DNA of 64,000 bases from the NCBI GenBank assembly GCA_030248295.1, contig JASANH010001287.1:31935-95934 (forward strand). Reading direction: 5' to 3'. Below are positions 3,871-39,642 of this stretch, piece by piece; within the stretch, counting starts at the first letter, position 1; the number at the start of each line of letters is the position of its first letter. The position numbers and the translations under genes are program-made. This DNA comes from Mesodorylaimus sp. YZB2_4. Lineage: Eukaryota > Nematoda > Enoplea > Dorylaimida > Dorylaimidae. Below the pieces are notes generated by a model. It worked only from the letters and a program-made list of their open reading frames with translations, ran no database searches and was not told the DNA's origin.

Positions 3871-5508
3871 ATGGCGCAAGCAGCAATGGAAGTAATGATA
3901 GCTGCAATGGCTACCATGCACCAGCCGTTCTATCGTATTTAGGAGAACAGTCCATTGACTGGTGAACTCACGCAGGACATCACGAAATGGTTTGATCAGT
4001 TTGAGTACCATGCCAGTTTGGTAGCTGGTATCACTGATGCCATTCGTCTAAATTAGCTCAAAAAGTCATTGAAAGACAGGGCATTGGATGTGTTCAGAAA
4101 CGCAGCCGCAGAGCGCGTGGTCACGTATGCACAAGCCAAGGAATTCTTGCAAACTAACTTGGTTTTTCCGCACCAAATTGCAATATGGCGTCAGAAATTG
4201 CAAAGCAGGAGAAAGCAGGAAAGTGAAACAGTAGCAGACTACGTGCGAGACTTAAGATCACTCGTACAGCAGGCATACGGAAATGAGCAAGAGGCAGCTA
4301 GAACACTAGTGCTAAAAGAACGATTTGTTAGCGGTCTGGAAGTATCAGACAAGGGCCATTCAAACTATAAACTTTGGAAAGCAGCATACCTAAACATGGC
4401 AAGGAGTTTAGATGAAGTAGTAGCGGCAGCAAACACTGCTGAGATGAATCAACGCATGTTTTCTTTAACCACTTCAGAAATTCAACGTTCCGTTGTCACG
4501 AACCCGACAAGCAATGAAATTGCGAACAGTTTGAACCTCGCCTACGGGAGCCGAGGAGGCTTCAGCCGTGGCAGTCGAGGTGGCAGTGGTGGTCGCGGCC
4601 ACTCCAGCGCTCAACAAGCTGGAAGCACGTCTTCGCCCCAACAACAACAACCGCAGTCGGTTTTGATTTGCACTTACGATAGATGTCGTGGCCACACGGT
4701 CGAATCCTGCAGAGCGTTGGTCACTGCGGAACAGACGTTCGAGAGAGATAACAACACGGCCTGTCATCACTGTGGTCGGTTGAATCACATCAGAGCCGAC
4801 TGCCGATTGTACGCTGGTGCAAAAGCTCGTTTGAACGGACAGGAACCTGTCACGGTTTCGTATCAGGTCAGTAATCACAGAGGTCACAGGCCAGGTCAGC
4901 ACTCACAGCGGACCACTCCAGTACCCCGATCGTCAGGTAACAGAAGTAATGGGAACCGAGAACGTAGTAATCATATGAAAGAGAATAATCAGCCATCAGC
5001 CACTACCTCGGGGGGACAGCATGCCGCCCTAGAAGAGGAGGGAGAGTATTTTCCCGCAGAGGATTTCTACTCAGCGGGTTTTTGCCTCTTTGAGTCATAT
5101 CAGGAACACACATTCGCATCGGAAGAGGACAGCTGTGTTGAACCAAACGATAAACACGGCTCTTTCCAGACTGTCATTAGCCCGGCTGGTGATACGTTGA
5201 ATGCACCAATCAACAATAATTCGCGTGGAAGCAATAGCCTTCCAATCAACGTCGGCGTCAACGCCACCTCAGTGATCGGTGGATCTCTCAACAACGTACC
5301 GATCATCAGTGGCGTCGCGGGTGGCAACAACACTCCACCCACTGACACTGCACCACCTGGTGGTAACGGCAGCGGAACCAGCAAAGATTATGAGGTAAAA
5401 TCAGTCTTAGTTATTTTCATCAGCTTATACACGAGACTGATCGCATTGCTTTCTATCATAGCCACCACCACGTGGATCGTTAGACGAACGAATCCGAGAA
5501 ATGATTAA
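3871..5508 (+). pseudogene. gag: Gypsy-type gag, forward copy, with in-frame stops
   Basis: The frame opens at ATG 3871 and is interrupted by TAG at 3940-3942 and TAG at 4054-4056, then stays open to 5508. The body reads like a retrotransposon capsid (IWRQKLQSRRKQESETVADY, a typical gag stretch), then an Arg/Gly/Ser-rich linker, a CTYDRCRGHTVESC segment and a canonical CCHC knuckle CHHCGRLNHIRADC (CX2CX4HX4C). The last about 35 residues form a hydrophobic segment followed by RR. That is odd for gag, and a donor-like GAG/GTAAAA at 5395-5396 suggests this tail may be intron read-through. Where the opposite copy has TGG (Trp), this copy has the first TAG. The second TAG is present in both copies. 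Confidence 0.85.
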
Positions 5509-5768
5509 CAGCAGTTAGTAAATGGCGAAAGGTCGGCTGGGTTCCTGTGGGGGAAGGAAGAGCCAATGATAAAACGACCATTGTTTGTAAAGGGAATATA
5601 TGTCCTCTTGTACCCCACGAGAGCCATGTATCTCTGGTTGATGAATTATAATGAATTCTATGGACAAAATAAACGCAAAAGAAAGGGCAGACGGCAACAT
5701 AGGGGACAATTTGGGACAGCAGCACCAGAACTTGGGCACTCGTTCGTCCCAGCAGCAGTCCCTACAGT
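5509..5768 (+). other. Gag-pol linker of the Gypsy element, frame unclear
   Basis: Three overlapping frames are partly open here and none is convincing. A Gln-rich run (SSQQQSLQ) directly precedes the protease frame. The segment may hold an intron if the donor-like site at 5396 is used, or a frameshift between gag and pol. Confidence 0.35.
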
Positions 5769-6903
5769 ATGGTAAAATTCGTAGATACAAACTTACAGTC
5801 AAGAGCATTAATGGACACTGGTGCCGGCAAGAGTTTCACCAACGAGACATTGCTTCAAACATTGCTTCATAACCAGCCTGCTCTCGAAGTGAGGCCATGC
5901 AAGTCAGCGCCCATGAAATCCATCAATGGTACAGCCGCGATTGCACGTAGCATCATCGTCACTGATGTGCAACTTCTGGACCGCATTATCAAACACCCGC
6001 TTTATGTCATGGACGGATTACCTGTGCCTATGATCATCGGAAGGGACATGATGGCGAAAATGGGTAAACTACAATTCGATTTTTCACAGAAAATGCCTTT
6101 GATTGCAGCCGTGATCGACATGTGCAAGGAGATCAAGGTCGAAAGGCACCCCACTATGAAAAACATCATCACAGTAATAGAGCCGACCACCGTGCCGCCT
6201 CGCACAGAAAAATTCATTTGGGGGCACTGCACCAATGACGAGTTCACTGATCAGGTAGCTTGTTCCATAGCGAATTATGAGCCTCTGTCTAGCGATATGT
6301 CACTCCTGATCGCCCACTCCGTAGTTAACATGAAAAAAGAGAGAAGTCCCCGTGCAGGCAAAAAACAACTCGCAAAATCCTATCACCTTACCACCCGGCA
6401 CAGCTGTAGGACACGAAGAAGAAGTAGCCGAAATCGTTCCATTTGATCTGCACACATTGACCAACCGCAGTCAGAAGAAAGATGACCCAGTGCAGCAAAT
6501 CCAACACATGACTTTTGACAATCCCCATTTGATGGAAAGTCAGAAACGCAGCATGAAGACATTCCTACTACAATGGGCTAAAAAGGGCATATTTGCTACT
6601 AGCAAACTGGACTTGAAACCAGCAAACGTCGAAATCGAACACGCAATCAACACAGGAGACCATCCACCAGTGCATGTACCGCCTCGCCGGTTCCCCTTTC
6701 GTCAGAGAGAGGTTGTGGAAAAAATGATAAAAGAAATAAAGGAAGGAGGCCAAATCGATGATGCATGTACATCATGGGCAAGCCCGATATGCTTGGTACG
6801 TAAAAAGACAGGCGAATATCGATTCTGCGTGGACTATCGCGCACTCAACGCCATAACAGTGCGAGATGAGCTCCCATTACCACGCATATCGGCTATTGCT
6901 TCA
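5769..6903 (+). pseudogene. pol: Gypsy pol: protease and N-terminal reverse transcriptase, truncated
   Basis: The frame from 5769 carries an aspartic protease active-site motif ALMDTGAGKSF and the second-half signature VPMIIGRDMM, as in retropepsins. A frame change near 6340-6352 moves reading to the next frame (open 6352-7035). That frame has the pre-RT linker NSQNPITLPPGTAVG and then RT motifs: HPPVHVPPRRFPFRQ, WASPICLVRKKTGEYRFCVDYRALN and PLPRI. This is the fingers region of a Gypsy RT. Just after PLPRISAIA the element homology stops, at the breakpoint near 6900-6904, where the sequence becomes the inverted gag copy. The palm catalytic YVDD, RNase H and integrase are therefore absent from this piece. 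Related RNase H/integrase sequence occurs at 38.6-39.6 kb, but whether it is the same family is not shown. Confidence 0.8.
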
Positions 6904-8259
6904 CCGCGAATTATTGTTGATTCGTGCATTCAACGTATCACCAGCCGGGCTAATGACAGTCTGGAAAGAGCCGTGTTTATCGTTTGGTTCAACACAGCTG
7001 TCCTCTTCCGATGCGAATGTGTGTTCCTGATATGACTCAAAGAGGCAAAAACCCGCTGAGTAGAAATCCTCTGCGGGAAAATACTCTCCCTCCTCTTCTA
7101 GGGCGGCATGCTGTCCCCCCGAGGTAGTGGCTGATGGCTGATTATTCTCTTTCATATGATTACTACGTTCTCGGTTCCCATTACTTCTGTTACCTGACGA
7201 TCGGGGTACTGGAGTGGTCCGCTGTGAGTGCTGACCTGGCCTGTGACCTCTGTGATTACTGACCTGATACGAAACCGTGACAGGTTCCTGTCCGTTCAAA
7301 CGAGCTTTTGCACCAGCGTACAATCGGCAGTCGGCTCTGATGTGATTCAACCGACCACAGTGATGACAGGCCGTGTTGTTATCTCTCTCGAACGTCTGTT
7401 CCGCAGTGACCAACGCTCTGCAGGATTCGACCGTGTGGCCACGACATCTATCGTAAGTGCAAATCAAAACCGACTGCGGTTGTTGTTGTTGGGGCGAAGA
7501 CGTGCTTCCAGCTTGTTGAGCGCTGGAGTGGCCGCGACCACCACTGCCACCTCGACTGCCACGGCTGAAGCCTCCTCGGCTCCCGTAGGCGAGGTTCAAA
7601 CTGTTCGCAATTTCATTGCTTGTCGGGTTCGTGACAACGGAACGTTGAATTTCTGAAGTGGTTAAAGAAAACATGCGTTGATTCATCTCAGCAGTGTTTG
7701 CTGCCGCTACTACTTCATCTAAACTCCTTGCCATGTTTAGGTATGCTGCTTTCCAAAGTTTATAGTTTGAATGGCCCTTGTCTGATACTTCCAGACCGCT
7801 AACAACTCGTTCTTTTAGCACTAGTGTCCTAGCTGCCTCTTGCTCATTTCCGTATGCTTGCTGTACGAGTGATCTTAAGTCTCGCACGTAGTCTGCTACT
7901 GTTTCACTTTCCTGCTTTCTCCTGCTTTGCAATTTCTGACGCCATATTGCAATTTGGTGCGAAAAAACCAAGTTAGTTTGCAAGAATTCCTTGGCTTGTG
8001 CATACGTGACCACGCGCTCTGCGGCTGCGTTTCTGAACACGTCCAATACCCTGTCTTTCAATGACTTTTTGAGCTAATTTAGACGAATGGCATCAGTGAT
8101 ACCAGCTACCAAACTGGCATGGTACTCAAACTGATCAAACCATTTCGTGATGTCCTGCGTGAGTTCACCAGTCAATGGACTGTTCTCCCAAATACGATAG
8201 AACGGCTGGTGCATGGTAGCCATTGCAGCTATCATTACTTCCATTGCTGCTTGCGCCAT
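6904..8259 (-). pseudogene. gag: Gypsy-type gag, inverted copy
   Basis: Read leftward from ATG 8259, this is nearly identical to the forward gag: the 386-residue open stretch 8061-6901 differs from it at only three residues that I could find. It has the same CCHC knuckle and RG-rich linker. It keeps Trp (TGG) where the forward copy has its first TAG, but shares the TAG at 8074-8076. It ends at the breakpoint near 6904, equivalent to about 5226 in the forward copy. With an LTR-like promoter region upstream (8.6-9.1 kb), this copy looks like the original 5' end and the forward one its inverted duplicate. Confidence 0.85.
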
Positions 8260-13440: not shown

Positions 13441-14639
13441 AAAAGGATTGGTTTTGAGAACAACTAGGATTCCTGGATCCCTTATAATGCAAAACGGAGT
13501 GATACATGACACCTTTAACAATAGCTCTGCGAGCAAAAACAACGCTGCTGATTCTGCTCCGAAGTTTTTTTTTAAAATCACTGTATAAATCTGGACTGAT
13601 GTTACATAGTTAGAATCAGAGTACATTTCCATTTTCTGTGGAAACGATGAAAAGTGAGTTGTCGTATTACTTGCTATTCCTACATACACAAAGTTTGTTT
13701 TCAAGCAGTTATTGATCAATACTTTTTGCGAGTCATGTGGCATTTAACCCAAATTAAAGAGAACGTTTTTCGGTCACCATCTTATGACGATCGAGCAATT
13801 CCAGAAGAACTTCCGAATGGATCGGGACTACTAGAAAAGATTCGAAAAGTGAAGGCTGTGGCAGTGAGGTTCGTAGCAAGTATGGGGAAGGTCGGCTGTG
13901 TTAGAGGCAGGGAGGGGTCGAGATCAGATCAGATCGCCTAAGCCCGATCTTATTGCGTGTAAGACGGGTCAGGTTTCGGTCGAGTCAGGTGATTAAGTTG
14001 TAGGACTGTTCATGTACATGCAGAACTGCAGGCTGGCTGGACAACTGGCCTGTGCTTCGATACCAGGGCTTGGTCAGTCAGGTCGAGTTAGGTCTTGGTC
14101 CAACCCACAAACAATTTGATAGCTTTTGCTTGCTTCCTTTTCTTTCTTACTGCCGGACCTGAGGTGGGGGGGGGGGGGTTCGAGAGAAAGGGGGGGGTTC
14201 GAGAGAAGAACTGCGTTTTAGAGATCTTTGGAAAGCTCCAGGACATCTTTGAAGAACTTTAGAAAAATTTAACTTCGAAGTAACGCCGCTTCAAACTGCA
14301 AAAATGTCCTTGCAGTATTCTAGAAAACAGTAAATTGGGTATGGCCTCCCAGGACTCATTCCTGAGGGCTCATAGCAATTGCGGCAGTTTTGGTCTGTGC
14401 AGCGTAGAATCATGCGTAATAGGCAGCGAGAGTGGCAGGAGCGCGCATTCCACATGGCTATCTCATAAACAGTAGAGACAGGTTCTGTAGTCCCAATATC
14501 ATCTAGTTCTAAAATTTTCCAAGTTTTTCCTCCCGATGAATTATGAGAATTATCGCGGGGATTGCGCTTTAAGTACGACAAGAACATTATCCAAAAGTCC
14601 TTTGACAGAAAGTTCGCCTACCGTTACGTCTGCGACATA
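13441..14639. other. No gene seen; G-rich microsatellite
   Basis: No supported gene. Near 14164-14210 two long G runs are followed by TTCGAGAGAA in tandem. The remaining open frames lack motifs. Confidence 0.4.
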
Positions 14640-15208
14640 GGTGCTGTAATCGGCAAGTCGTTCAAGCAAGTGCATGTCGAAATGGGGATCGCACTAGACG
14701 AGCGTGACTGTGATGGGAGAAATGCGGACTAAGTAGCGCTCTCTGGACTCCAGCCAGCGAACTTATCATCTTCGTCAGTGCCTTGATCTGTGCACTAGCA
14801 CAGCCTTGCAAAGTTTGAATTAATCTGCGTTTTTTCTCAGGCTTTGCTGTAATTTTACGTCTGTCATGACTAATTCGTTAGATCTGTTCGCGTTTTCACA
14901 GTGGATTTTTTAAGAGCAGTAAAGTCTAGAGTGAAGCGATGTTTCCAAAGTGCATCCTAGCCCCTCTTTTCGGCCGACTTGAAGTGAATTGGGTGGGTCA
15001 TGCCACATGGTGTTTTGAGTGCACATGCCCAGGGAAATATTCGAGGGGCCAACAAAATAAGTGTTCACAGAGGTGAAGATGATAAGTTCGCTGGCTGGAG
15101 TCCAGAGAGCGCTACTTAGTCCGCATTTCTCCCATCACAGTCACGCTCGTCTAGTGCGATCCCCATTTCGACATGCACTTGCTTGAACGACTTGCCGATT
15201 ACAGCACC
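14640..15208. repeat. Inverted repeat, 134-bp arms
   Basis: Arms 14640-14773 and 15075-15208 are almost perfect reverse complements around a 301-bp spacer. One end reads GTGCTGTAATCGGCAAGTCG. It is likely another foldback element, unrelated in sequence to the CATGGCTATA family. No target duplication was recognised. Confidence 0.75.
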
Positions 15209-15770
15209 TCTGCACACCCGCACATTGAAGTCTATCTGCAACTTCGCAGCTCAGGCTACACCACATCAGATCAATCGCAAGCTTTTGCCTCCCACTATGT
15301 GGTTGCTTTATAGTAATGTCATATGTATTCTTTTTCGATATTCTGGTACCGACTCTAGAGTGCCCAGCGTCTTTTTAAGTCGGATAAAGATGATGAGATT
15401 AATCTCGTATGTAATCATGAGTTACCTTGGTCGCCTAGTCGATGCGAGTAGCAGATTATTTGAAGCTCTTTTTCTATTAACCATTCTAGCTTACGGAGAA
15501 CTTTTGCAGATATGCTCTTCAATATCCGGGCAAAGCAAAACTTTGATTGGTGGAAAAAAAGTAATCGCTAGTAAACTTGGCCAGCTATCGTCAAGCTTCT
15601 TGATATCCTGTAGCTTTCTTTGACGTCATCTTATTAAAATACCTGCGATCAACTGGCCTTGCAAGCCTTCCAATCTTGCAATTTGATTTCCGTGATCCTT
15701 CTTTGCCTATGATAACCGTATTATGTAGAGGATTGAGGATCAGCGGGGAATTACCTTCGCCATAAGGCTA
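15209..15770. other. Spacer with one unassigned ORF
   Basis: An open frame at 15183-15623 (+) would encode a hydrophobic 146-residue product that starts inside the inverted-repeat arm. Codon use and composition give no clear support and no family is recognised. Confidence 0.3.
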
Positions 15771-15909: not shown

Positions 15910-16619
15910 TTGGGTGAGGGCGTGGTGTTGGTCGTCGGGGTGCTGGCGGTGGTCGGAGCGGTGGTCGTCGGGGCGGTGGTCGGGGCGAGGCGGTGGTCGG
16001 GGCGAGGCGGCCGCGGCCGATGGTCTGGCCGGGCCTAGAAAGAAGATTTGGGTGAGTGAGGGCGAGCCTGGGAGGCTCCAAGTAGCCAGACTTACCGTTT
16101 GGGCAGGGCGGTGGTCGTCGGGGCGGTGGTTGGGGCGAGGCGGCCGCGGCCGATGGTCTGGCCGGGCCTAGAAAGAAGATTTGGGTGAGTGAGGGCGAGC
16201 CTGGGAGGCTCCAAGTAGCCAGACTTACCGTTTGGGCAGGGCGGTGGTCGTCGGGGCGGGCCTACAAAGCAGAATGGGGTGAGTGAGGGTGACAGGGTAC
16301 ACACAGGATAACAAAGTCTTACTTACTCGAAATGGCACTCCGGGAGGACATATTCGACGCAAGCACAAATGGCTGGTGTTACGCCGAGTGCGTGCGCCAA
16401 CTCGGGAAACAACGATCCGAGTTTGACAGGGCAGCACCTGATGGTCGTGACTGCCCTGAAGTCCATTGTGGCCACCGTCGAGTGACAATGGATGGCCAAT
16501 AATTCGGAGAGCCCCAGACGGCCCTCGCACACTGCGAGTGTATCATCGGAACACTCGCAGTCGCCGCGGATGTTAGCGGCGCCGACCAAAAGAAAAAAGA
16601 AAATAATTTCAGCGACCAT
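15910..16619 (-). CDS. Small secreted/membrane Cys-rich protein with Thr/Pro stalk exons (paralog A)
   Basis: Translation from ATG 16619 gives a signal peptide (hydrophobic IIFFFLLVGAA), then a Cys-rich domain with CECSDDTLAVCEG, a central CH, CCPVKLGSLFPEL and ICACVEYVLPEC. Exon 1 ends at 16327 in phase 2 with donor GTAAGT. Further exons bounded by TAG and GTAAGT are 16261-16229 (33 nt), 16167-16096 (72 nt) and 16034-15910 (125 nt); they encode Pro/Thr-rich stalk sequence such as APTTTALPK. Exons and introns are tandem duplicates of one another. The domain is clearly paralogous to the gene at 17411-17952, with the same intron position and phase. No membrane anchor was found downstream, although a possible extra exon begins near 15830. 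The last exon contains a 17-bp duplication that changes its frame. Function unknown; it resembles a mucin-stalked surface protein. Confidence 0.7.
15974..16260. repeat. 133-bp tandem duplication of exon-intron units
   Basis: A unit of 133 bp containing half an exon, a 61-bp intron and half the next exon is repeated: AGCCAGACTTACCG occurs at 16084 and 16217, and the rest aligns at the same offset. Within the left part, a 17-bp word (CGGTGGTCGGGGCGAGG) occurs twice in tandem at 15974-16007. Confidence 0.85.
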
Positions 16620-16659
16620 TTTCGTATTCAACCGTTCTTGCTGAGAATCAAAGCGCAAA

Positions 16660-17410
16660 TGATGAGCTTGGCCGGCTTTGCCTGCATTGCTATCACGGCC
16701 GAGGCGGGCGATGCGACCCGTGGTCGCCAGACAGGTGCCATCTAATGGCCTAAGCTAGTGCAAAAACTGCAAGGGACTTACAGTTTTTGGAATTTCGGGC
16801 TGATCTAATCGTAGCTCGCCTTCGTTTTGAGGGCGTCGCTCCAGCTATAGCGACGTGGCTCGCTCGCTGTTTGCAGACCATTGCTTAGGCCAGTTCTTAA
16901 AAAGAGGCTGATGTTGTATCTCTTATTTCGTGTTTTGGCGAGAAGGATGTGAAGCCCATGTTTTGGCTTTTGGCCATCCGTCGGTGAGCTGGCTAGCATA
17001 AAGTGCGGCGAGTGCTGTCACTGTTAATCGCTCGCGCAAAAAACGAGAAAACTTTGCTATGAAACCCGCCAAGGACAAGGTCCACATTTTCCGTGCCCGC
17101 ACCCCCCTCTCCGCTCTGAAGCATCGCCGCTACAGCCTTCCCGCAATAAGTCGCTAGTCAAACTCGAACGCCTGTCTTCTATGGCGGAATTTGCATATCA
17201 CATGTATCCAGCACGGACTGTGCGCCGCTCATATTAGAGGTGTCGGCGGGGGGGGGGGGCCCGCAAGCTAGGTCGACTAGGTGCGAGACAAAGAAACTGG
17301 ATTGCCAAAAAAACACAACTGCTGAAGCAGGCAGTGTGTCGCATAAAGACAATCGTGGAAGGTTGCGTCCAGTTGTGTTCGTATTTTCGTGCAGCAAGTG
17401 GAGTGAAAAA
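16660..17410. promoter_or_regulatory. Shared spacer between two divergent paralogs
   Basis: The two membrane-protein genes point away from each other across about 790 bp, so both promoters should lie here. I see no clear TATA box that I would stand behind. A run of 11 G at 17250-17260 lies near the start of the right-hand gene. Confidence 0.35.
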
Positions 17411-17952
17411 ATGATTCGTATTTTCGTGCTCATTTCCTTGATTTTGCAATCGGGGCAATCGTTCAATGGCTGCAAATGCGGCACTAACACTATTTTTTGC
17501 GCCGGCAACATTAGGCTCGGTGATATCATATTGGCCGAGTGTCACAACGACGCCGTGGAACTTCAATTCGCGTTCGGTTCTCAGCTCGAATTCTGTCCGA
17601 TCGATTTGACGCACCTGTTCCCTTCGCTCAAATCATTGGTCGGTGTCAATAACGAGATCTGTCGTTGTATTTTGGGCAATTTTGACGATTGCGCCCCGAG
17701 GTAAGGAAAAAGTCAGTCCAGTCCCTGTTGTGCGTTGGACACTGGGCACGGATGGGGGAGGGGGGGTGGGCCGGCCAAGAAACTGCATCGTTGTAACATT
17801 TTCAGTTCTGCCTCTCGCTTGACTAGTGCTAACTTTTCAGTCGATTCACCTCGACGTTTCCGACGCGAACCAGTGGCGCCGCATCGGGCGCGAAAGAAAT
17901 CGTCGCGTTGCTCGCAACGGTGGTTGTGATCGTTTTGGTGAGACGAAATTGA
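17411..17952 (+). CDS. Small type I membrane Cys-rich protein (paralog B)
   Basis: Exon 1 (17411-17700) starts MIRIFVLISLILQSGQS, a signal peptide, followed by a domain with CKCGTNTIFCAG, ECH, FCPIDLTHLFPSL and ICRCILGNFDDC. It ends in phase 2 at CCCCGAG/GTAAGG. Joining to the acceptor CTTTTCAG at 17840 gives exon 2 (17841-17952), which encodes a short Ser/Thr linker and one membrane span, IVALLATVVVIVLV, ending RRN and TGA. Together they give a complete protein of about 133 residues with signal peptide, ectodomain, anchor and basic tail. Eight or more cysteines align with paralog A, whose exon 1 also ends in phase 2. I do not recognise the family. The topology suggests a surface receptor, ligand or viral accessory glycoprotein. 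The splice join is inferred from sequence. Confidence 0.75.
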
Positions 17953-18098
17953 GAAATTTGTGGACGAAGCATGGCTGTCGCTGCGGTTGTTGCTCCGTTG
18001 TGAAGATATTACTTTCGTGCGGTTGTGTTTTGTGTGGAGTTTGAATGTGTTTTCTGGGATGTGTGGAAATGATCAAATAGAACTGTAGAAACATTCAG

Positions 18099-18294
18099 AG
18101 CAGAATTGGATGCAGTATTGGGTGAATTGGAGCGAGTCACGAAGTACTACAAAAGGCTCCAACAACAAACACATGTGTTAGAGAGCATGTGCGTGCGGGC
18201 CTTTTGCACCCTCCTACTGCTACTTGCTGTAGCTATCATTGTTTCGTTCATCTACTGCCCATTCGTTCGCAGGCTCCTATGCAGGCGGAGTTGA
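18099..18294 (+). CDS. Terminal exon: coiled coil plus membrane anchor
   Basis: After an acceptor-like CATTCAG at 18092-18098 the frame reads AELDAVLGELERVTKYYKRL (heptad-like Leu/Val spacing), then a hydrophobic span LLLLLAVAIIVSFIYC and a basic tail FVRRLLCRRS ending at TGA 18292-18294. No ATG lies upstream in frame, so it is best read as the last exon of a spliced gene; its partner exon is not identified. A membrane-proximal helix followed by an anchor and a short basic tail is the typical end of a fusion glycoprotein or single-pass receptor. It ends only 14 bp before the envelope-like start at 18309. Confidence 0.5.
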
Positions 18295-18308
18295 CTGATT
18301 GCTCGACA

Positions 18309-19815
18309 ATGTCTATGTCACTGATCGTTTGGTTCACGATCGCAAGGGCCGGTGCCTACGCCTTCGACCAGTCGAGATACATTTCTTGTGGCAAAGCTCA
18401 GAGTGGGCACTATGTCCGCATACCTGAACGAGTGAACTGCACGGTGCCAAAGAAACAACAAGTTGAGTTCACCGATGTCAAAGTTTGGATTCCGACACAC
18501 AAAATGGCTACTGTCGAGGCCTGGAAATGTTTGGTGAAGAAGAGGAAAGTGTGCACCTGGACAGGGGTCTTCGGGTCGTATGGTGTCCTCAGTGACCACT
18601 CGTGGACCGAAGCTGTGTCTCGGCAAGACTGTCGCACTGCTGTTGAACGAAAGACTGCCTTTAGCTCGCCATTGCTGGAGCAGCATCCCCGCCTGTGGAC
18701 GACCAACAGGACCATGACTGTTGCGTACACGTGGTGCTGCAAAGAAGTCTGCAGCGAGGTCAGCAATTTCATAGTCCAAGTCGGAACAATCGGCTCAGTT
18801 GACGGGGTGAAGCTTCTCTCTGATTTGGACGATGCGTCACGATGCCACGTCTCCACGGGATCGTGCACCACTGTCGATGGCATAGTCATCTGGAATCAGA
18901 CACTTACGCCCCCTTGTGACTTCGAGGAAAAAGGGAAATACGCGGCTATGATGACAGACAAACACGTCATTATTGAAGGGCTGACAGGGGCATTTACGAT
19001 AGCACGCGGGACACCACACCATTTTCCCAATACCACGTGTTTGCCACGGGGCACACGTTTCACTGAGCAGGGACCTGCGATACTATTCCTGGCCAGGCCG
19101 CAGCAGAAATCTTCTGCCAGCAACGTGGGATTGATTGTCTCACGCAATCTAACAGACGACCTGTCAGCTGGCGTGTGCTCGACGACAGCAGAACGGGACT
19201 GTTGCTGAGAGCCTCGTTGAGGAAGCCTCTGCTGGCCCCCTGGGTGAGGCAGGACAGGCCGCACACTGTTTGCCGAAATGAGCCCATCAATCGCCACTTG
19301 GGAACGATCTGTTTCTGGCCTCGCTGCCTGAAACAGGTATAGACTGATTGGGCGGAGATTCGTCCAGGTCGCGCAACTCACTTACATAGAACTGCAGCAG
19401 TCCGCAAGCTCGCTTGCAGCAACACCTTGCCAGAACACACTCCTTTGCAGAAGTCAAACAGGTGCAGAACCGCACGAAACAGCGCTCAACGCATCCACAC
19501 CCGCCGCGGGCGTTTACTGGACGAGGTGGCTCAGGATCGACTGCAATTGGGATTTCGAAAACGGTGGGGGGCAGCCTCCGGGCCATTCTTCGAATAGGAC
19601 TTCTCATAACCAAACATGTGCGCAACGCGGTTAAATATTCGAATTTGACGCCTCAGGCATCATCAGCCGTGCAAGGTTCACGTCACTTGGAGCGCAACCG
19701 TCCCAGTCTAATGAGCTCGTACAATTCTGCCAATCAGACCCAACGACAGTCGAAGTCGTTGGGTCTGACGCGTGCGCACCAGAGCACTACGGAGACGGTG
19801 TCAGACAGTAACTAG
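18309..19815 (+). pseudogene. Virus-envelope-like glycoprotein, broken
   Basis: From ATG 18309 the frame is open to TGA 19206-19208 (about 299 residues). It has a signal peptide (SLIVWFTIARAGA), many cysteines, including a WCC, and five N-glycosylation sequons (NCT, NRT, NQT, NTT, NLT). Glycoprotein-like coding continues beyond the stop in other frames: a short Cys-containing stretch to about 19345 ending at a donor-like CAG/GTATAG, then a frame covering about 19355-19630 and another to about 19815 with Cys and Asn-x-Ser/Thr sites. At least two frame breaks are present. Cys spacing and length recall ectodomains of negative-strand RNA virus or retroelement envelope proteins, but I cannot name the family. 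No fusion peptide or anchor was placed with confidence. It sits between membrane-protein genes and a transposase, all on the plus strand. It is an old genomic copy, not an intact virus gene. Confidence 0.6.
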
Positions 19816-19909
19816 ATCGTGACTGATTGCTGGAACCCCTTGCGTGAAACCTTTCGCAGACACAAGGTATGAATAAGCTCGCCTAAAGACGGGTCATGGC
19901 GATACGGAG

Positions 19910-20977
19910 ATGGCGTCCGCTGGAAAGTTAGTGCAATTAAACGTACGACTTCTATCAGAAGACTTGGAACGAATCAAAGCTCTATGTGAGACCAGGAAAT
20001 CTTTCCGTTATAACGAATCCTTGGGTGATACCGTAGCTTTCCTGCTTCGTTTTTATGAAGAACACGAGTCCTCATTTCGAACGCCTCGGCAACAATCAGT
20101 AACGGCGTCTACGCCTAGACGCCAACCCGGAAGCATGTTCGCCGAAGAAACATTTCGAGAAGAGCAACCTTCTTGGCCAGCAAGCTCGCGCAGCAGCCGA
20201 GATCAAAAGCGTCACGCCGAGGAAACTCCGTTCAAGCAACCAGTCTCACTCCGCGGTGCTCCCCCAGCAGCTTCTCGAAGATTGGATTTTGAGGAGCGAG
20301 ACGAGTCGGACGAAGAAGATGTGCTGAACCTAACATTCAACAAGGCCGACCAAGACGTGCATGAGTTTTTGGATGAGGAGGAGGCGGAAGAGTATGATGC
20401 CGACGAGTACGTTGCGGCTCAAATGCAAGCGCCGCCACTCGACACTACGACGACCAGTCTCGACGTCGTCAAAGACCTGCCTCCATTCTCAAAGATGGCA
20501 ACAGCGGCCAAATCAGCCAAAAAACCTACCCCCGCAACCAAGCTGCCGTGGAGAATGCGTCAAGACACAGACGTCATGTCAACGGAAGCCTCGTCCGCGA
20601 GGCGTACGCAGAACGTTCGTTTCGACTACAGTAAGTCCACGAAATTATTGCCTAAAGGATATTACGAAGAGTTCAGTCGCGACACTAAGTGTCGACTACA
20701 CAGGCCCAGGCAACCTGACAACAACTACAACGGCTATGTTCCACCACGGTTATCAAAGAACAAAAGAGCGCAGCCTCGCCATATAAGTCCAGCGCTAGTT
20801 GTAGAAGCACAACGCTTGATAGCCGAATTGAATCAAATAGCCAAATTGATTTCTCCGAAGTGCTACGACGCACACTGTCCCAACATGAACGATTTCTCCA
20901 CAATCAAGAAGGATACAATAGTAAGCTCTTGGGCAGCAGACATCATTCCAAAACATTATCCAAATATCTTATCTTAG
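19910..20977 (+). CDS. N-terminal part of a second Kolobok-like element protein (RHH-like domain)
   Basis: The 355-residue frame from ATG 19910 begins with LVQLNVRLLSEDLERIKALC and continues with a second helix ending FLLRFYEEHESS; strand-helix-helix is what a ribbon-helix-helix-like DNA-binding domain looks like. An acidic, low-complexity middle follows (DEEEAEEYDADEY) and then a basic Pro/Lys-rich part. The frame overlaps the transposase C-terminal frame at 20860-20977, so the two are either joined by splicing (donor-like GTAAGC at 20921) or split by a frameshift. Some transposases of this type carry a similar N-terminal domain before the Cys block. The central catalytic region that should follow is missing. 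Confidence 0.5.
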   Translation: MASAGKLVQLNVRLLSEDLERIKALCETRKSFRYNESLGDTVAFLLRFYEEHESSFRTPRQQSVTASTPRRQPGSMFAEETFREEQPSWPASSRSSRDQKRHAEETPFKQPVSLRGAPPAASRRLDFEERDESDEEDVLNLTFNKADQDVHEFLDEEEAEEYDADEYVAAQMQAPPLDTTTTSLDVVKDLPPFSKMATAAKSAKKPTPATKLPWRMRQDTDVMSTEASSARRTQNVRFDYSKSTKLLPKGYYEEFSRDTKCRLHRPRQPDNNYNGYVPPRLSKNKRAQPRHISPALVVEAQRLIAELNQIAKLISPKCYDAHCPNMNDFSTIKKDTIVSSWAADIIPKHYPNILS

Positions 20978-20979
20978 AG

Positions 20980-21753
20980 AGACGGAGCCGCAGTTATTAT
21001 AACAATCTGGTGCAAGGATGGACAAACCGGAGAACGAGTCCACAAAAAGTATATAAGAAAGTACAAGACGTGGTCACAAATCAACGGACTGTTGTCGGGT
21101 TGATCCACTATTTCACACATTTCAGGCAAGCTGCTATGTTGGATACTCAGCTTCCCTACAAGTGGTTAAACGGCGCTGCATTTTTTAGGCAAACAGGCGA
21201 CCTAGAGGCATTTCACTCACTAACTTTGCGATACTGTTCCAAACGCATCTATTATGGATTCATAGGGATGACCTGCCGGAAGCTGCTAGCAGCTTTGGAT
21301 CACAATCATCATGAAGCTTTGCCACAGCTGACATACGCAGATGGGACACCAGTGCTCCGCATAAGGCACACAAAGAGATCAAACAACTGGGTTGAAGTTG
21401 TCCAGAAAGTGGCCAAAGATTACGTCTACTTGAGCCACATTCTGCAGCTCATTCTACATCTTCGCACGACAGACGTGTCACTGTTCCTACAACGACTAAA
21501 ACCCGCCACCTCTCTCATACCAAACCACCCTAAACTTATTGCCCCTAATATCGCCAAAACTCAAAGAACCAGACAAGAGGTTCTCCAGGATCCCCGATCA
21601 CGGTTTGCTTCGATACTCACAGTCGTCGAAAGTGATAGGGCCGACCACGACGAAATGGATCCCCAGCTCGATCAAGAAGAGCTTGAAGGAATACTTGGCA
21701 GCGAAGTCGACGAATCAGACAAATACGAGAGCGACGAAGATTCAGACTCTTGA
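20980..21753 (+). pseudogene. C-terminal part of Kolobok-like transposase (second locus)
   Basis: This frame (open from 20860) contains LIHYFTHF, GDLEAFHSLTLRYCSKRIYY, GFIGMTCRKLLAALDHNHHE and, further on, GTPVLRIRHTKRSNNWV, then an acidic tail ending EDSDS. The blocks LE.FHS....Y..KR and ALD.N are also present in the transposase at 761-1522 (LLESFF, AVLDLNENVGRP), so the two loci encode the same domain. Here it is better preserved at this end. The upstream D-containing core (the DCRFSRPGY and ITDE region of the other copy) is not present between 19910 and 21000, so the protein as read cannot be catalytic. It could be a deleted transposon or a co-opted gene. Confidence 0.65.
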
Positions 21754-22563: not shown

Positions 22564-23704
22564 GTCTCCTTTTTATAGTCAACGAAGAATTAGGAAACTC
22601 ATCTTTCACCAATAGTTTTCGCCTAAATCTGTCTTCCGTCCATTCGTGCGAAAGGCTGATGAGTAGTTTGACACAATTGTTGACACACCATGTCCGTCGC
22701 ATTCTTAGTTTGCCTGAAATTGCCTATCTTCCTAGCTCCACTAGTTGGCAGAACAGTCAATTTACAGGTAATGACTTCTAACATAGACATCACGAAAGTG
22801 GCGCCAATGATCACCTATTTCCCTACTTTAGTCCTCCTATAAAGACAAAACTAATTCCCTACTTACCTCATTCCCTTCTTCTTCGATGACCTTCATCTCC
22901 TAACGTGGTTTGCCTTTCATGGCCCGTCTCTTGGTCCGTTATGGTGATTGTCCTAAAAATAAATACTTGTGCTCATTCAAAGGAACGCTCGAAATATGAA
23001 AATTTCTCTGACTCATTCACATCCGCGCCACCCGCACGTCTATTCATTCCAACTGCGCCGTGAATAAATGAGCACGCGTCGGCCAACCCCCCCCCCCCCT
23101 CCTCCGACCGGCCGGCCAGGCACGACTGCTTGGCGCTGGCAGTCGAGCCTAACATCCATCAACATGTCGCCGAACGATCCTCCTGACCAGATAAGAAGGA
23201 AACAATACTTTTTGTCAGACTGATAAGCCCAGAAGCAGATGAAACTATACATACTCCAGTTTCTTTGATTCTCAACCGATTTCTTCCAGGAAAAAACTTT
23301 TCCCATCAAATAAAGCATGCGGAACACGATAAAACCATTTATTTTCCTCCATGTTGGCTCTGAAGTAATTTTTACCAAAAAAAAACCCTACGAATTGTTT
23401 CAAAAAATTTGCATTTAGCGCTTTTTTGGCCTACGCAGTTTGCCTGAAGTCCAAGTGATAGCGGATTGTCTGCAAATTAGCGAAAACGCTCAAATTTTAG
23501 AATCCTGTCTGAGCTGGTTAGCGTGCCTTTAAATTTACCGCTCACTTGTGTAATATGAATTTAGTATGTGAGTTGATCAAGTGGGCGCACATTGATACAT
23601 AGCTTTACACTTTTCTCTGTGAAGTCATCACGCGTTATTGGACGGCGCGTGGTGTACCCCAGCAGAGCGTCTGGGTGAAAGCATGGTACACATGCAAGTA
23701 TACT
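22564..23704. other. No gene seen
   Basis: Possible introns or upstream exons of the dsRBD gene lie here, but nothing can be recognised. A run of C at 23087-23100 is followed by a GGCCGGCC-rich patch. Confidence 0.35.
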
Positions 23705-30571: not shown

Positions 30572-32692
30572 GGTTTCCCATCACATAAGAAAAAGCAGTG
30601 TTTCACTGCAAACTCCACTGTGATTTGAAGTGCGCCTGACTGACACCTTGTACTTGCTCTTGCCCAGTTGGAAACAGCTCGTCGAGTATGATATGGATCG
30701 TTTTATCCGATGGGATATTTGTGAGAGGCTTTACTCATCGACACTGGCCATCATTGTGCTCTTTGCGACATCAGAAGAGCAGATCTCCTGCACAAAAGAA
30801 AAAACTATCCTTCACAGTAAATTCATTTATTTCCAGAGATGAGAGGATAGGGGCTAAAAGCAATGACTGCACTGTAATCAGGATGACGCAATTCAATCTT
30901 CCCCGAGAACCACTGTACAGTACATCCGACGAGTTCCGCAGGGGACATGCGCCCAGGAAACAATATTCTCAACAAAGTACATTCCTAGTCTCTTTAACGT
31001 AAGAATCATTTACACGATAAAAAAAACGCTGATATATATGTTTTACAATCAAACTTTTAAAAAATTGAATCGAATAAGCAAAAGATTTCAGCACATTTCC
31101 ACCACAAGCCTAAAAATGGCTTACTAAAAAAAGAACGTCGCCAACCCTTAAATCGAACCTCACAAAACTGAAAATTGTAATTTGTTCCTTGGCGCAAAAT
31201 AAGGCTCTGCGCAAAATATAAGAGGCGTCTGGCCAACTGGTTAGCAGTGGTCAGCGCTTAAAGCCTTAAGAATTTTTGAAGTTTTTGGGGTAAGGAATCC
31301 GTCCGTTGAGACAAAAGGGCAGACGGGGTGGCTTCCAACCCTCGCGGATAAGGCACCACTAGGACAGCCATTGTGACACGTCCTGAATTGAAGTCTTGGC
31401 GCAATCTCAAGTTGCTGTCCTAAATAGTGCCCTGATTACGTACCCGTCCTGAAATTAGGATTGCGTCATGAGCCCCTTGCTGATTGCGAGTCGTGTGCTA
31501 TTGCAGTTATCTTACTCGTACATTAAATTAAATGTGCGAACTTTTTAGCAAAAAAAACAAGCTTTTTAACTCATTAAATTTAGCAAACAACACAGCGGCT
31601 CTCATCTCTTCTGACGTTGCATATTCGACGCTTTCCTCCCGAATAGAAATTCTAGCTTTCGCACAAATACTGTGCGCGCTCGGGGGAGGGGGGGGGCGAG
31701 GGGCACCAACCCGAAGGGGAAGGAGTTGAAGGACAAAAAGGGTGGTCGGGCCCTGACGCCACCGACCACCCTACTCTGTCTAAATCTTGTAATTAGAGCA
31801 CGCAATACTGAAGAATGAGGAGCAAAGGACGAGCGGATCAAGACCTCTGACTTTACTTAGTACCGATTGATCGAGAGCTGAGCTGAATTTGTTGCCAAAT
31901 ACAGTAGACAGGGCTGGGAATGGTCGAAAAATTATTTGCGTTTCCTATTTCTGGCCCATACTCGTATAATCGACCCTTCAGATCAAAACACGCGGACAAA
32001 ACTGCCTCAACCAGTCTTAGAAAAAGGGCACGCTGCTTTAACAATCAGGTAACGTAGGCTGCTAGTTATATTCAGATTTACACCAATCCGCCAGAATCCG
32101 CCAAAAAACCCAAAATCCACTGCAAATTCCGCTAAAACAGTCGATCCGTTGTTTATCCCGCAAAAAATCCGCCAGATTCTGCGAATTCTAGCTGCATCTG
32201 GCGACGCTGCTCGAGCCCGCTCTAGCAAATCACCATTGAAAAGACTTTATTGTGCCATTGAGCGTTCTTATCTGACTTTTTGCTTTCTTTCGACTGGAGT
32301 TGGGTGAAGTACAGTAACTTGTTATGTTTTTGAGCTTGAGGACAGGCTACGAATAGTTTTTGCTTCATAACTGAGTCTGCTTTCCTCATTAGGCTTATTT
32401 AACCGCCAATAGAGCCCTGAATAAACTTTCAATTACCCCTTAGCTCGCCATTTCTAATGGAGACGTATCATTCAGACCCACACTTTTTGCTGCCGAATGG
32501 AGGTCATTATATTTCTCGGCTTATAACTACCGCCCAGTTCCTTTTTCCCACTCTCCTTGAACACCAAAACAGAAGGCGACACGTTCGAATGATCGAGTCG
32601 GAAAGCCACGAAAGTTTCTACTTACCGAGTAGAAGATCCTGTTAAAGCTTGGAATAAATGACATAAAAGAAAGATCATTTCACGTTGGAACA
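30572..32692. other. No gene seen
   Basis: Motif-free frames only. At 31232-31265 the words TCTGGCCAACTGGTTAGC resemble a Pol III A box, but no good B box follows. At 31680-31705 there is a G-rich run. At 32080-32190 ATCCGCCA-like words recur. Confidence 0.4.
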
Positions 32693-33712
32693 ATGTCGAA
32701 TTCTAGCTGTTTGCTTTTTAAATTAAAGTCCATAATTCAATTTATTGATGGCCTATCGTTCATCTCTTTTTACTTGGTGCGACCCACATGCCTAATATTT
32801 GACTTTGTTGGCCATGTCCTCTTATTTAAAACATTATTTTGGCGATGGAGCTCGAATGAAGTCTCGAAATTTCAACTATACGAAGGCGCCTCCGGAAGTG
32901 TCCTCTGTCTATCATCAGCTTTCAAACTAATTATGTTGGATTGGATGTCGGGAATAAATAGAACAAGTGGCGTAGAAGGATTCAGAAAAAATTATTACCT
33001 GCTGTGGGTGACATCCCACTTGGTCATTCCATTCAAAGATGTGGCTATAACAGCTACTTTATTTTTCTCATTTGCCACATCCTTGGATCGAGTTTGTGCG
33101 ATCGCTTTCTCAACAAAATACAAGCAGAGGAGTGAAAAATTCTAGGAAATATCAGTTGTAAGCTTGTCGTTAGGTATAAGTATTTTATTGTCATTGTACG
33201 TTTCTTTTCTGTTCAGGATAGTTTTACTCCCTGAGAGCCAATTGTATGAAAGCAGCGCAAACCCCAATCTTTAAGGAAGTAAAATTAGCCTGTTTTTATC
33301 AAATTTAAGAAATAGTATGCGGATTTTGGGGGCTGTGTGCGTGTGTGTGAGTGGATCGAACCTCGTTTATGTGTATCGACAAAGGAATAGGCGAGTTTTT
33401 ACAATGACTAGATTATCATCTGATCGCGATACAAGTATGGACAACCGAGAGAAAGAGGCCGAAAAATCATTGTTCATTCTGACTGTTTATCAAAACTGTC
33501 AAATCGTCAATCAAATAACACTTATCTCCACTCATGGTATTCTTGCTTTGAAACCAGGATTTTTATCCTGTGGGGGTTCAATTTTTTCATCGTTAAGAAA
33601 TATTTGGCTATCTGTTGTAAGCGCCTCAGATTTTTATGTCATGATGCTGGTAAGCAAGCATTTCAGACAAAAACGCAAAGCTGGAATTTTTAGAAAGCTG
33701 CTTTACCAGTAG
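32693..33712 (+). pseudogene. Serpentine receptor pseudogene 2 (full length, two in-frame stops)
   Basis: A single frame of 340 codons runs from ATG 32693 to TAG 33710-33712 with no indel, broken by TAG at 33143-33145 and TAA at about 33272-33274. Seven hydrophobic segments can be followed. TM3 ends in SLDRVCAIAFSTKYK (DRV in the DRY position) and TM7 reads VVSASDFYVMMLVSKHFRQ. Compared with the other copies, the first stop stands where copy 1 has Trp and the second where copy 3 has Gln, both single-base changes. The gene resembles invertebrate chemosensory or peptide class-A receptors; the subfamily is not decided. It appears single-exon. Recent pseudogenisation is likely because only nonsense changes are seen. 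Confidence 0.75.
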
Positions 33713-36465: not shown

Positions 36466-37500
36466 TCAGCTTTGAGCAGAATTACTAGAAGGTGCGGGCT
36501 TCCGCATAGCAGCCAACACCGATTGCCTGAAATGTTTGTTGACCAAAACCATGACATAGAAATCTGAAGCATTGACGATTGATAACTAAAAATTTCTTGC
36601 TGACGAGAAAATTAATCCTCCGCACGGAATATATCCTGGTATAAGAGCGAATAGACTATGGGCAACTATAAAAGTCGTTTGATTTATGATTTGGGATGTT
36701 TGATAAACAGTCAAAATGAAGAGTGATTTTTCAGCCTCTTTTCTTTTCCTGCCACTCTTTATTTCGCGTTCACTGAGAGATTTTGTCAAGGTGATAACTT
36801 GATTATTCCTTCCTCTGTACAGATGTACAAGAATCGAGCCTGCGACGCACACGCACAGGGCACCAAGGATCCAAACAGCGTTGCGCAAATTTGACAAGGC
36901 AGAGCTGAGTGGCCTGCCTTGAAACGAAGGCTCAGCACTGATTTTATACAGCTCGCCACTGGGATTCATTGATAACTTGAACAAAAAGCACACATAAAGT
37001 GACAGTGAAATACTAAGAGAGGATCGCAGGCTCAAAACTAGAATTTCACAGAATCTCTTACTCCTTTGCTTATACTTTGTTGGGAAAGCAATGGCGCAAA
37101 CTCGATCCAACGATGTGGCGAGTGGGAAGAATAATATGACAGTGATGGCCGTGTCTTCGAATGGTATGACTAAGTGGCAGGAAACCAACATCAGAATGTA
37201 AATTTTTCGGAATTCTGTCACGCCGCTAGCGCTGTTTGCTCCGGACATCCAATTCAAGAAAATTAGTTTAATAGCTGATGAGACGGAAAGTACACCCTTG
37301 GCTATGAATTCGTACAATTGAAATTTCGAGTATTTCTCCGAGCGTGATTGCCGATATAATGTTTGAATCAAGAAAAGGTGACCAACAATATCGAATATTG
37401 AACAGACAGGCTTGATCAATTAAATAGAAGCGAATGATAGATCATTGATAAAGCCAGTTATTGAGTCGGAGGCCAGAAGCGCACAAGTAAAATTCGACAT
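36466..37500 (-). pseudogene. Serpentine receptor pseudogene 3 (full length, two in-frame stops)
   Basis: One frame of 345 codons runs from ATG 37500 (MSNFTCALLASDS) to TGA 36466-36468 without indels. It is broken by TAA at 37420-37422 in TM1, where copy 2 has Tyr, and by TAG at 36586-36588 in TM7, where copy 2 has Trp. TM3 ends TSLDRVCAIAFPTKYK, the intracellular loop carries KRKEAEKSLFILTVYQ, and TM7 continues after the stop as VNASDFYVMVLVNKHFRQ. It is a paralog of copy 2, in opposite orientation about 3 kb away. Confidence 0.75.
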
Positions 37501-38825: not shown

Positions 38826-38946
38826 TGGCTTAAAAAATACGAGTACCTCTTGAACTGATATCGTGAATCAATGAAAAATGAAATGAACTATCTGTGAGTC
38901 ATGGACGAGTCGTCGTTTTTAAAGTACTGTATGTCAACTGAGGATT

Positions 38947-39642
38947 TTGAGAATGCTACATTCAGGACATTTGGGAACAATGGCTACGCGTGCGTTAGCG
39001 CAACACTATGTGTGGTGGCCTAAACTCGATATGGAAATCAAGAGATTTGTGAAATTGTGCGAATCCTGTCAGCAGACTAGGAATTGGCCTGCTGAAGTGC
39101 CATGGCATTCATGGAACGTGCCCGATGGACCATGGGAGAGGGTACATGTGGATTTTGCGGGACCAATCGATAAGAAAATGCTGTTTATTCTAATTGATGA
39201 ATTTTCGAGATGGACAGAAGTCAAAGTTATGAGAAAAGCAACGTCAGCCAAGGTTACTAACATTTCGAATGAATGGTTTTCTAGATTTGGGTCTCCATCA
39301 CACCTAGAGAGCGGCAATGGTCCGCAGTTTATAATAACGGAGTTCGCCCTATTCTGTAAGCAGTTGGGTATCACTCATATTCAAACCACTGCCTATCACC
39401 CGAAAACAAATGGATTTACAGAGCGATTTGTGCAGACTTTGAAGCATCATCTATCCGCTTATGACAAAGGACCTTTAGACCAGCGAGTACATTCCGTCGT
39501 GATGGCTTACCGTATGACACCACAAAAGACAACTGGTCAAACTCCAGCGGAAATGTTTTTGACACGAAAATCCCCTCACCGATGCCGCTCGACAGCGCGT
39601 GGCAGGAAAAGGCTACAAGGCGCCAGCAGTGAACCTGTTTGA
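38947..39642 (+). pseudogene. Gypsy integrase with damaged catalytic triad
   Basis: The 231-residue frame has the zinc-binding head (LHSGHLGTM...YVWWPK... LCESCQQTRN) and then the catalytic core. The first Asp is in VHVDFAGP and the Glu in HPKTNGFTERF, but the second Asp, normally in SDNG, is Gly: LESGNGPQF. The protein should be inactive. It ends early at TGA 39640-39642 just after AEMFLTRK, with a frame-shifted tail. Upstream sequence needs a frameshift to join the RNase H piece. Confidence 0.8.

What the first reader, a model, noticed from the sequence alone, without database searches (positions are those of the whole stretch)
15910..21753. Cluster of surface-protein genes, an envelope-like glycoprotein and transposase pieces: candidate virus-like DNA transposon
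Seen in sequence: within 6 kb there are two paralogous signal-peptide proteins (one with a clear membrane anchor), a coiled-coil plus anchor exon, a Cys-rich glycoprotein with five sequons, and N- and C-terminal parts of a Kolobok-like transposase. Known: DNA elements that gained envelope-like genes exist (for example Mavericks in nematodes). Inference: these genes may travel together as one element that makes surface proteins, which would be an unusual combination for this transposase class. The alternative is nesting of unrelated decayed elements.
Basis: partly seen in the sequence, partly recalled or inferred. Interest (0 to 1): 0.88.

Follow-up and report, generated by a model that had tools for sequence, protein, structure and literature searches.

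The report
Transposons carrying a virus-like fusion gene
The window holds a broken copy of an unusual jumping gene that pairs a cut-and-paste transposase with a virus-type membrane-fusion protein, and related copies elsewhere in the same genome show the two genes lying together between the jumping gene's own ends.

Summary
The cluster is real. The "glycoprotein" is the front half of a class III fusogen: a full-length relative (C392) hits Pfam PF24664 Monjiviricetes_fusion above cutoff, and the family profile hits herpesvirus gB. The transposase halves belong to a TTAA-type, Kolobok-like family. In the window both genes have deletions relative to a second copy on C450, and no TIRs were found, so the case rests on relatives in the same genome. 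On C70 an 11.6-kb element with TTAA and matching ends on both sides holds transposase and fusogen; C2 and C105 carry both between the same, partly degraded ends. The eight transposase-linked fusogens put in a tree group apart from four LTR-element ones. Older pairs show purifying selection (omega 0.09, 0.29); recent pairs do not. A CXC protein recurs at 7 of 10 loci, weakly at three. The window's small surface proteins have relatives in Mavericks. No Maverick-type capsid or polymerase gene was matched, so how, or whether, the fusogen spreads the element is inference. Six paper searches showed no such element.

The parts
15910..16260 (-). Thr/Pro-rich stalk exons of surface protein B, in tandem units of 133 bp
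   Evidence: Two direct-repeat copies of 133 bp, 98%; minus frame 2 reads APTTAPTTTA...; C450 has a longer array. Splice sites inferred by eye.
16326..16619 (-). surface protein B, signal peptide plus Cys-rich domain
   Evidence: ORF; paralogue of protein A and relative of Maverick and C392 proteins
17411..17700 (+). surface protein A exon 1, signal peptide plus Cys-rich domain
17841..17952 (+). surface protein A exon 2, transmembrane anchor
   Evidence: GT/AG junction read by eye, in-frame translation
18094..18294 (+). coiled coil plus transmembrane anchor reading frame; which gene it belongs to is unknown
18315..19117 (+). N-terminal half of a class III (Monjiviricetes/gB-type) fusion glycoprotein, truncated
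   Evidence: 48% identity to the C392 fusogen over its residues 22-271; that relative hits PF24664 and the family profile hits gB; 1.75 kb missing relative to C450 at 19117
19287..19652 (-). CXC (Tesmin/TSO1-like) protein reading frame
   Evidence: BLASTP 9e-08 in a single comparison with the C768 CXC protein; tblastn matches in C450, C392, C768 and, not significant, C551 (0.064)
19910..20974 (+). N-terminal part of the Kolobok-like transposase
   Evidence: 28 genomic matches
21046..21753 (+). C-terminal part of the Kolobok-like transposase; core missing at 21046
   Evidence: 66 genomic matches; C450 has 1.29 kb more at this point

Best explanation
The window carries a dead copy of a lineage of TTAA-target, Kolobok-like cut-and-paste DNA transposons whose gene set includes a transposase and a class III membrane-fusion glycoprotein of the Monjiviricetes/gB type, usually with a CXC-domain protein, and with lineage-specific small surface proteins in some members. 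Shown: in a related lineage, fusogen and transposase lie together inside shared terminal sequences at three insertions with different flanks; the fusogens of such loci group together; and older fusogen pairs show purifying selection. Inferred: that the window's copy, whose ends were not found, is the same kind of element; that the transposase moves the element by cut and paste at TTAA; and that the fusogen, expressed on cell or vesicle membranes, helps element DNA reach other cells (for example soma to germline) or other hosts, as env does for LTR elements. As no capsid gene was matched, vesicle carriage or use of Maverick particles would be needed.
For:: C392 fusogen hits PF24664 at 3.3e-12 (45.6 bits, cutoff 27), 5 of 6 rows match at E up to 1; the profile of six rows hits gB at 1.2e-07 (best stretch alone 1.8e-05); 10 of 66 transposase loci lie within 5 kb of a fusogen match, against 0 of 91 Harbinger-like control loci (Fisher 1e-4; 9 of 66 without Gypsy-type C377, 3e-4); transposase then fusogen colinear at C70, C105 and C141 (71-91% DNA identity by segment); 12 of 15 other matches end at or within a few bases of one point; 9 other loci start within 6 bp of one point; 43 matches to the TTAA-plus-end pattern, against 1 for the reversed control. 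TTAA and a 15-of-16 match at the two ends of C70; 8 transposase-linked fusogens, C55 and C525 on one side of a 97/97 branch; omega 0.09 (C392-C525) and 0.29 (C70-C105). CXC protein at 7 of 10 loci.
Against: No terminal repeats found in the window (best TTAA-anchored pair 10 of 14, controls 8-12). Gene order and strand differ between lineages (window: fusogen then transposase, same strand; C392 and C768: divergent; C551: convergent; C70, C105, C141: transposase then fusogen; C514: reversed order). 56 of 66 transposase loci lack a fusogen match within 5 kb. Transposase loci also lie within 5 kb of Harbinger loci at 4 of 66 and of Maverick ATPases at 2 of 66, so part of the proximity could be shared TE-rich ground (10 vs 4, p 0.16; 10 vs 2, p 0.03). 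No uninterrupted full-length transposase frame was seen in the fusogen-linked copies read (introns not excluded). C2 has a changed right TTAA and C105 changed TTAA at both ends. Recent fusogen pairs show no constraint. No expression or transfer data.
Confidence: 0.8

Rival explanations
1. Nested unrelated decayed elements: a solo viral or LTR-derived glycoprotein, Maverick remnants (small surface proteins) and a Kolobok-like transposon landed side by side in TE-rich DNA.
For: Each gene occurs independently: fusogens in BEL/Pao and Gypsy-like elements, surface proteins in Mavericks, transposases without fusogen. The fusogen beside the C377 transposase is a Gypsy-type one flanked by Gypsy genes. 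No TIR found in the window.
Against: Both genes inside the same ends at C70, C2 and C105; fusogens grouping together; a third shared gene at several loci; 0 of 91 control loci near a fusogen. The TIR-bounded copies belong to a relative, so for the window itself this rival is weakened, not excluded.
Confidence: 0.12
2. The cluster is a segmental duplication or a remnant of a larger integrated virus (for example a Maverick or a large DNA virus) of which only these genes survive.
For: Window and C450 share the region at 92-99%; the surface protein family is shared with Mavericks.
Against: No tblastn match of the C418 Maverick ATPase, capsid-region, integrase-like or polymerase-region frames in the window or in seven other stretches (C450, C392, C70, C525, C768, C141, C514) or in C105, C377 and C551; diverged Maverick genes could be missed. 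The C70 element is 11.6 kb from end to end.
Confidence: 0.05
3. The fusogen is kept as protection: it occupies receptors and blocks viruses or LTR elements with related fusogens, so that the transposon is tolerated.
For: Related fusogens occur in LTR elements of the same genome; receptor blocking by solo glycoproteins is discussed for mosquitoes (PMC7642597, passages seen).
Against: No expression data; a blocking protein need not stay inside the transposon or keep its own grouping.
Confidence: 0.15
4. Passive cargo: the fusogen was captured once and hitchhikes without a role.
For: Recent copies show no constraint (window-C450 omega 1.8, C70-C514 2.2, C105-C55 1.0; few changes).
Against: Omega 0.09 at dS 1.85 and 0.29 at dS 0.16; presence in several diverged lineages.
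Confidence: 0.15

Closest known systems
Teratorn (piggyBac-herpesvirus fusion, medaka; PMC6431247, passage seen)
   Same: Cut-and-paste element joined to virus genes, including an envelope glycoprotein (TTAA target of piggyBac is recalled)
   Different: 41-182 kb with about 90 predicted genes besides a piggyBac-like transposase; here 6-12 kb, Mutator/Kolobok-type transposase, no Maverick-type capsid or polymerase matched
Nematode Mavericks with a fusogen (Widen et al. 2023, not read; seen only through PMC10680173, passage)
   Same: DNA element with a virus-type fusogen; the window's small surface proteins are homologous to a Maverick gene pair of this genome
   Different: Mavericks carry integrase, polymerase and capsid genes; no match to such genes here
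Anakin: BEL/Pao retrotransposons with chuvirus glycoprotein (PMC7642597, abstract and passages seen)
   Same: Captured glycoprotein of the same broad viral type
   Different: LTR retrotransposon; a similar element exists in this genome (L016) but its fusogen lies outside the transposase-linked group
Burro Gypsy-like elements of planarians (PMC6431247, passage seen)
   Same: Env region with hits to mononegavirus fusion glycoproteins
   Different: Env lies in frame between gag and pol; this resembles the C10 element of this genome, not the window
Kolobok DNA transposons (recalled)
   Same: TTAA target, terminal repeats, transposase relatives that include THAP-bearing proteins
   Different: I recall no Kolobok element with a fusogen; no reference library was compared

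Membership tests
Kolobok-type DNA transposon | TTAA target duplication | tested here: met
   In relatives: C70 and the C24 MITE have TTAA on both sides; C2 changed at the right, C105 at both ends. Not found in the window.
Kolobok-type DNA transposon | Terminal inverted repeats | tested here: met
   In relatives: 15 of 16 bases match at the two ends of C70, TTAA included; the C2 left end is identical to the C70 left end over these bases and its right end has two changes. Window: none found.
Kolobok-type DNA transposon | Kolobok transposase | tested here: inconclusive
   Window parts have no Pfam hit at E up to 1. Distant relatives in the genome hit PF20700 Mutator, and one of them finds two PF20700 and two THAP-bearing proteins. 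No Kolobok reference on hand.
Class III fusion glycoprotein (PF24664) | Profile match above cutoff | tested here: met
   C392 relative 45.6 bits, cutoff 27; 5 of 6 rows match at E up to 1. C70 and C514 copies lie below the cutoff (22.1 and 22.9 bits). The window fragment lacks the matching region and has no hit.
Class III fusion glycoprotein (PF24664) | Class III fold and fusion loops | not tested
   By its stated rule the fold tool does not take loci of this kind; no model was made.
Maverick/Polinton | Integrase, PolB, capsid, ATPase | tested here: not met
   No tblastn match of the C418 Maverick frames in the window or in the other loci searched; only the surface protein family matches.
Env-bearing LTR retrotransposon | Reverse transcriptase and integrase next to the fusogen | tested here: not met
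   Gypsy pol matches in the window only at 6346-6903 and 38944-39330; no Pao match.
Teratorn | piggyBac transposase plus herpesvirus genome | tested here: not met
   No piggyBac hit in the ORFs scanned, which are a part of all ORFs; herpesvirus hits only the gB similarity of the fusogen and one sub-threshold hit (window 1082-1585).

The most novel reading that the evidence does not exclude
A lineage of capsid-less cut-and-paste transposons has permanently adopted a class III viral fusogen (with a CXC protein and, in some members, Maverick-type surface proteins) and uses membrane fusion, through vesicles or borrowed particles, to spread between cells and hosts: a DNA-transposon counterpart of an enveloped retrovirus without a virion of its own.
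Probability: 0.35. Interest if true: 0.95.

Novelty: new variant of a known kind. Interest (0 to 1): 0.82.

Why it matters
How naked DNA transposons jump between species is an open question. A small cut-and-paste element that has kept its own fusogen under selection would give a direct, testable route, and would show that envelope capture is not limited to retroelements and virus-sized DNA elements. It also points to exchange of surface genes between Mavericks and cut-and-paste transposons in one genome.

Tried and rejected
Searching the C392 fusogen in the protein set of 5.8 billion gave no hit among the 7998 candidates scored; a scan of IMG/VR gave none confirmed. Pfam on the window ORFs gave only one sub-threshold hit. 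TIRs in the window: none of the three inverted-repeat pairs of 20 bases or more brackets the cluster convincingly (one is a G/C run, one a 20-base 85% match inside it), the C70-type end was not found at up to 3 mismatches, and TTAA-anchored pairs are no better than controls. The apparent right end at window 23528-23533 is where another repeat begins; most of the tail of C940 is another abundant repeat. C55 looked like a full element with two ends but is an inverted duplication that includes the flanks. The type II membrane glycoprotein next to the C55 fusogen was considered as an attachment partner and rejected: 18 of its 25 matches lie on C55, the rest on C160, C205, C563 and C3; outside the C55 locus the only one on a contig with a fusogen match is on C563, 35 kb away. 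C377 was dropped from the linked set in one count because its fusogen is Gypsy-type. The profile of the small surface proteins found no solved structure (best E 0.69). Papers: Widen et al. 2023 was not read (recalled, and seen through a meeting report); PMC7642597, PMC6431247, PMC11071296 and PMC10680173 were seen as passages only; PMC6881383 only in a search listing. Searches meant to find a published DNA transposon with envelope or fusogen; nothing in the listings described one, but one search listed 12 of 65 papers, and the listed papers were not read beyond those named.
Full report
What is in the window. The window is G000:C320:31935-95934 of a 145-Mb genome in 1067 contigs; the organism was not identified. 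Between 15.9 and 21.8 kb lie, in order: a minus-strand small secreted protein with a Thr/Pro-rich stalk of tandem exons, a plus-strand paralogue with a membrane anchor, a coiled-coil plus anchor frame, a truncated glycoprotein, a minus-strand CXC-type frame and two halves of a transposase.

The glycoprotein. Its 297-aa frame has 120 scored matches in the genome, a lower bound. The C450 copy and the relatives on C392 (662-aa frame) and C70 (612-aa frame) show a protein of about 600-660 aa with signal peptide and C-terminal anchor (both features read by eye). The C392 protein hits PF24664 Monjiviricetes_fusion at 3.3e-12, above the curated cutoff. Of six rows, at E up to 1, five hit PF24664, four herpesvirus Glycoprotein_B and three BDV_G; for C392 the latter two lie below their cutoffs. 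C70 and C514 copies score below the PF24664 cutoff. A profile of six rows finds gB structures at 1.2e-07, best stretch alone 1.8e-05. The region that matches is one the window copy has lost: relative to C450 it lacks 1.75 kb at 19117.

The transposase. N and C parts have 28 and 66 matches. In relatives the two parts are separated by 1.6-1.9 kb (C211, C392, C768, C1057; computed from the rows); the window lacks this core, with a breakpoint at 21046 where C450 has 1.29 kb more. More distant genomic relatives hit PF20700 Mutator, and a search with one of them found two PF20700 proteins and two THAP-bearing proteins of a fish and a tick. With TTAA target sites (below) Kolobok is the best name, but the name is recalled and no Kolobok reference was compared.

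Do they travel together? Within 5 kb of a fusogen match lie 10 of 66 transposase loci, against 0 of 91 Harbinger-like control loci (p 1e-4). Dropping C377, whose fusogen is Gypsy-type and flanked by Gypsy genes, leaves 9 of 66 (p 3e-4). The weaker comparisons: transposase loci lie near Harbinger loci at 4 of 66 and near Maverick ATPases at 2 of 66, so against these the excess is p 0.16 and 0.03. Of the nine, C70, C105, C141 and C514 are copies of one element and the window and C450 are one duplication, so proximity alone is only moderate evidence.

The ends. C70, C105 and C141 share transposase and fusogen in the same order and strand at 71-91% DNA identity by segment; C514 is 98-99% identical to C70 in both but rearranged. 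A search with the fusogen's downstream DNA gave 15 other matches, of which 12 end at or within a few bases of one point. There TTAA follows at C70, C514, C878 and both C55 sites, and a form with one or two changes at C105, C231 and C2. The pattern TTAA plus 18 bases has 43 matches with up to 3 mismatches, against 1 for the reversed control; many belong to a short MITE-like repeat, as at C24. A matching left end lies at C70:230439, where 9 of 30 other matches also start within 6 bp; 300 Markov simulations gave no such site at one mismatch. So C70:230439-242054 is bounded by TTAA and inverted ends. C2 has a left end like that of C70 and a changed right end 6 kb apart, with 4 kb at 88.6% to the C70 transposase region and a fusogen match inside. 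C105 has both ends, 7.3 kb apart, with changed TTAA. Flanking DNA differs at the three sites. A 224-bp MITE on C24 bears the same two unequal ends and TTAA on both sides.

One group, long kept. In a tree of 14 rows, 8 fusogens from transposase loci (window, C450, C392, C768, C551, C70, C514, C105), C55 and C525 lie on one side of a 97/97 branch; the other side holds three Gypsy-type and one Pao-type fusogen. C55 shares the C70 end but no transposase of this family was found in it; C525, labelled solo, has only a weak transposase match 9.5 kb away and nests inside, so the label as I set it needs two changes. C141, C2 and C377 were not in the tree. Three rows are under half filled, five are flagged as long, and the root is a midpoint. 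Constraint: omega 0.09 between C392 and C525 (251 codons, dS 1.85), 0.29 between C70 and C105, 0.45 between C70 and C55; recent pairs show none (window-C450 1.8, C70-C514 2.2, C105-C55 1.0), as expected of decaying copies; C392-C450 and C392-C768 were saturated.

Other genes. A CXC-type protein is found at the window, C450, C392 and C768, weakly at C551 (0.003), and at C70 and C141 only through a C-terminal stretch (C768-C70 2e-06 in a single comparison). That is 7 of the 10 loci with a fusogen of this group that were scanned, not C105, C514 or C525; nor was it found at C377, C302, C940, C10, C12 or the C418 stretches, at E up to 0.5. The small surface proteins form a divergent pair at the window and C450, and one with a Thr-rich stalk lies beside the C392 fusogen. 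Relatives form a divergent pair, one anchored and one with a collagen-like stalk, in Mavericks whose shared parts are about 99-100% identical over the stretches compared; 6 of 13 surface-protein loci lie within 5 kb of a Maverick ATPase. I call C418 a Maverick from its integrase-like, capsid-region and packaging-ATPase-like frames; Pfam support is weak, so that name is partly by eye and recall.

How it may work. Shown: bounded elements with transposase and fusogen at several sites, and constraint on older fusogen pairs. Inferred: cut-and-paste movement at TTAA, expression of the fusogen from integrated copies, and a benefit to the element through fusion of cells, vesicles or borrowed particles. 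A listing abstract reports gene transfer by vesicles that carry the fusogen syncytin (PMC6881383), which makes a capsid-free route conceivable. Nothing here tests transfer.

Standing. DNA elements with envelope genes are known in virus-sized form (Teratorn, Mavericks), and LTR elements with this type of fusogen are known (Anakin; Burro). A small cut-and-paste transposon with a fusogen and no virion genes was not seen in the listings of six searches, which cover open-licence papers only. I file it as a new variant of a known kind. The window's own copy is a fragment whose ends are unknown.

Noticed in passing
L019 (C10:96001-106000); L012-L013 (C12:74001-94000): Gypsy-like elements with the fusogen in a long frame before protease/RT; in L019 a gag-like hit (just below cutoff) and a CCHC knuckle precede it in the same frame, as reported for planarian Burro elements.
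   Followed up: partly
L016 (C781:1-8000): BEL/Pao element with a 2452-aa frame that holds a PF24664 fusogen in its C-terminal part, Anakin-like.
   Followed up: partly
L026, L040, L041 (C418); C724, C678, C789: Near-identical Mavericks that carry Cys-rich surface proteins, in C418 and C724 as a divergent pair, one with collagen-like stalk and coiled coil.
   Followed up: partly
window 14636-14773 and 15075-15212: 138-bp inverted repeat, 99% complementary, 301 bp apart, just left of the cluster.
   Followed up: no
window 881-2643 (-): A second, decayed transposase of the same broad (PF20700) family.
   Followed up: no
window 4057-8073: Two near-identical gag-like frames in inverted orientation with retroelement pol fragments between them.
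   Followed up: no
window 23528 onward: Sharp start of another repeat, with copies of 91-98% identity at C350, C67, C365, C852 and C464, at a TTTAAA.
   Followed up: no
C24:229834-230057 (L053): 224-bp MITE with the same unequal ends, and TTAA on both sides, as the fusogen-bearing element.
   Followed up: yes
L048-L049 (C55:549401-562500): 5.9-kb inverted duplication; holds a member of a family of type II Cys-rich membrane proteins with 18 of 25 matches on C55.
   Followed up: partly
window 32633-33145 (+), 36586-37419 (-): Two related multi-spanning receptor-like frames in opposite orientation, perhaps host genes (by eye).
   Followed up: no
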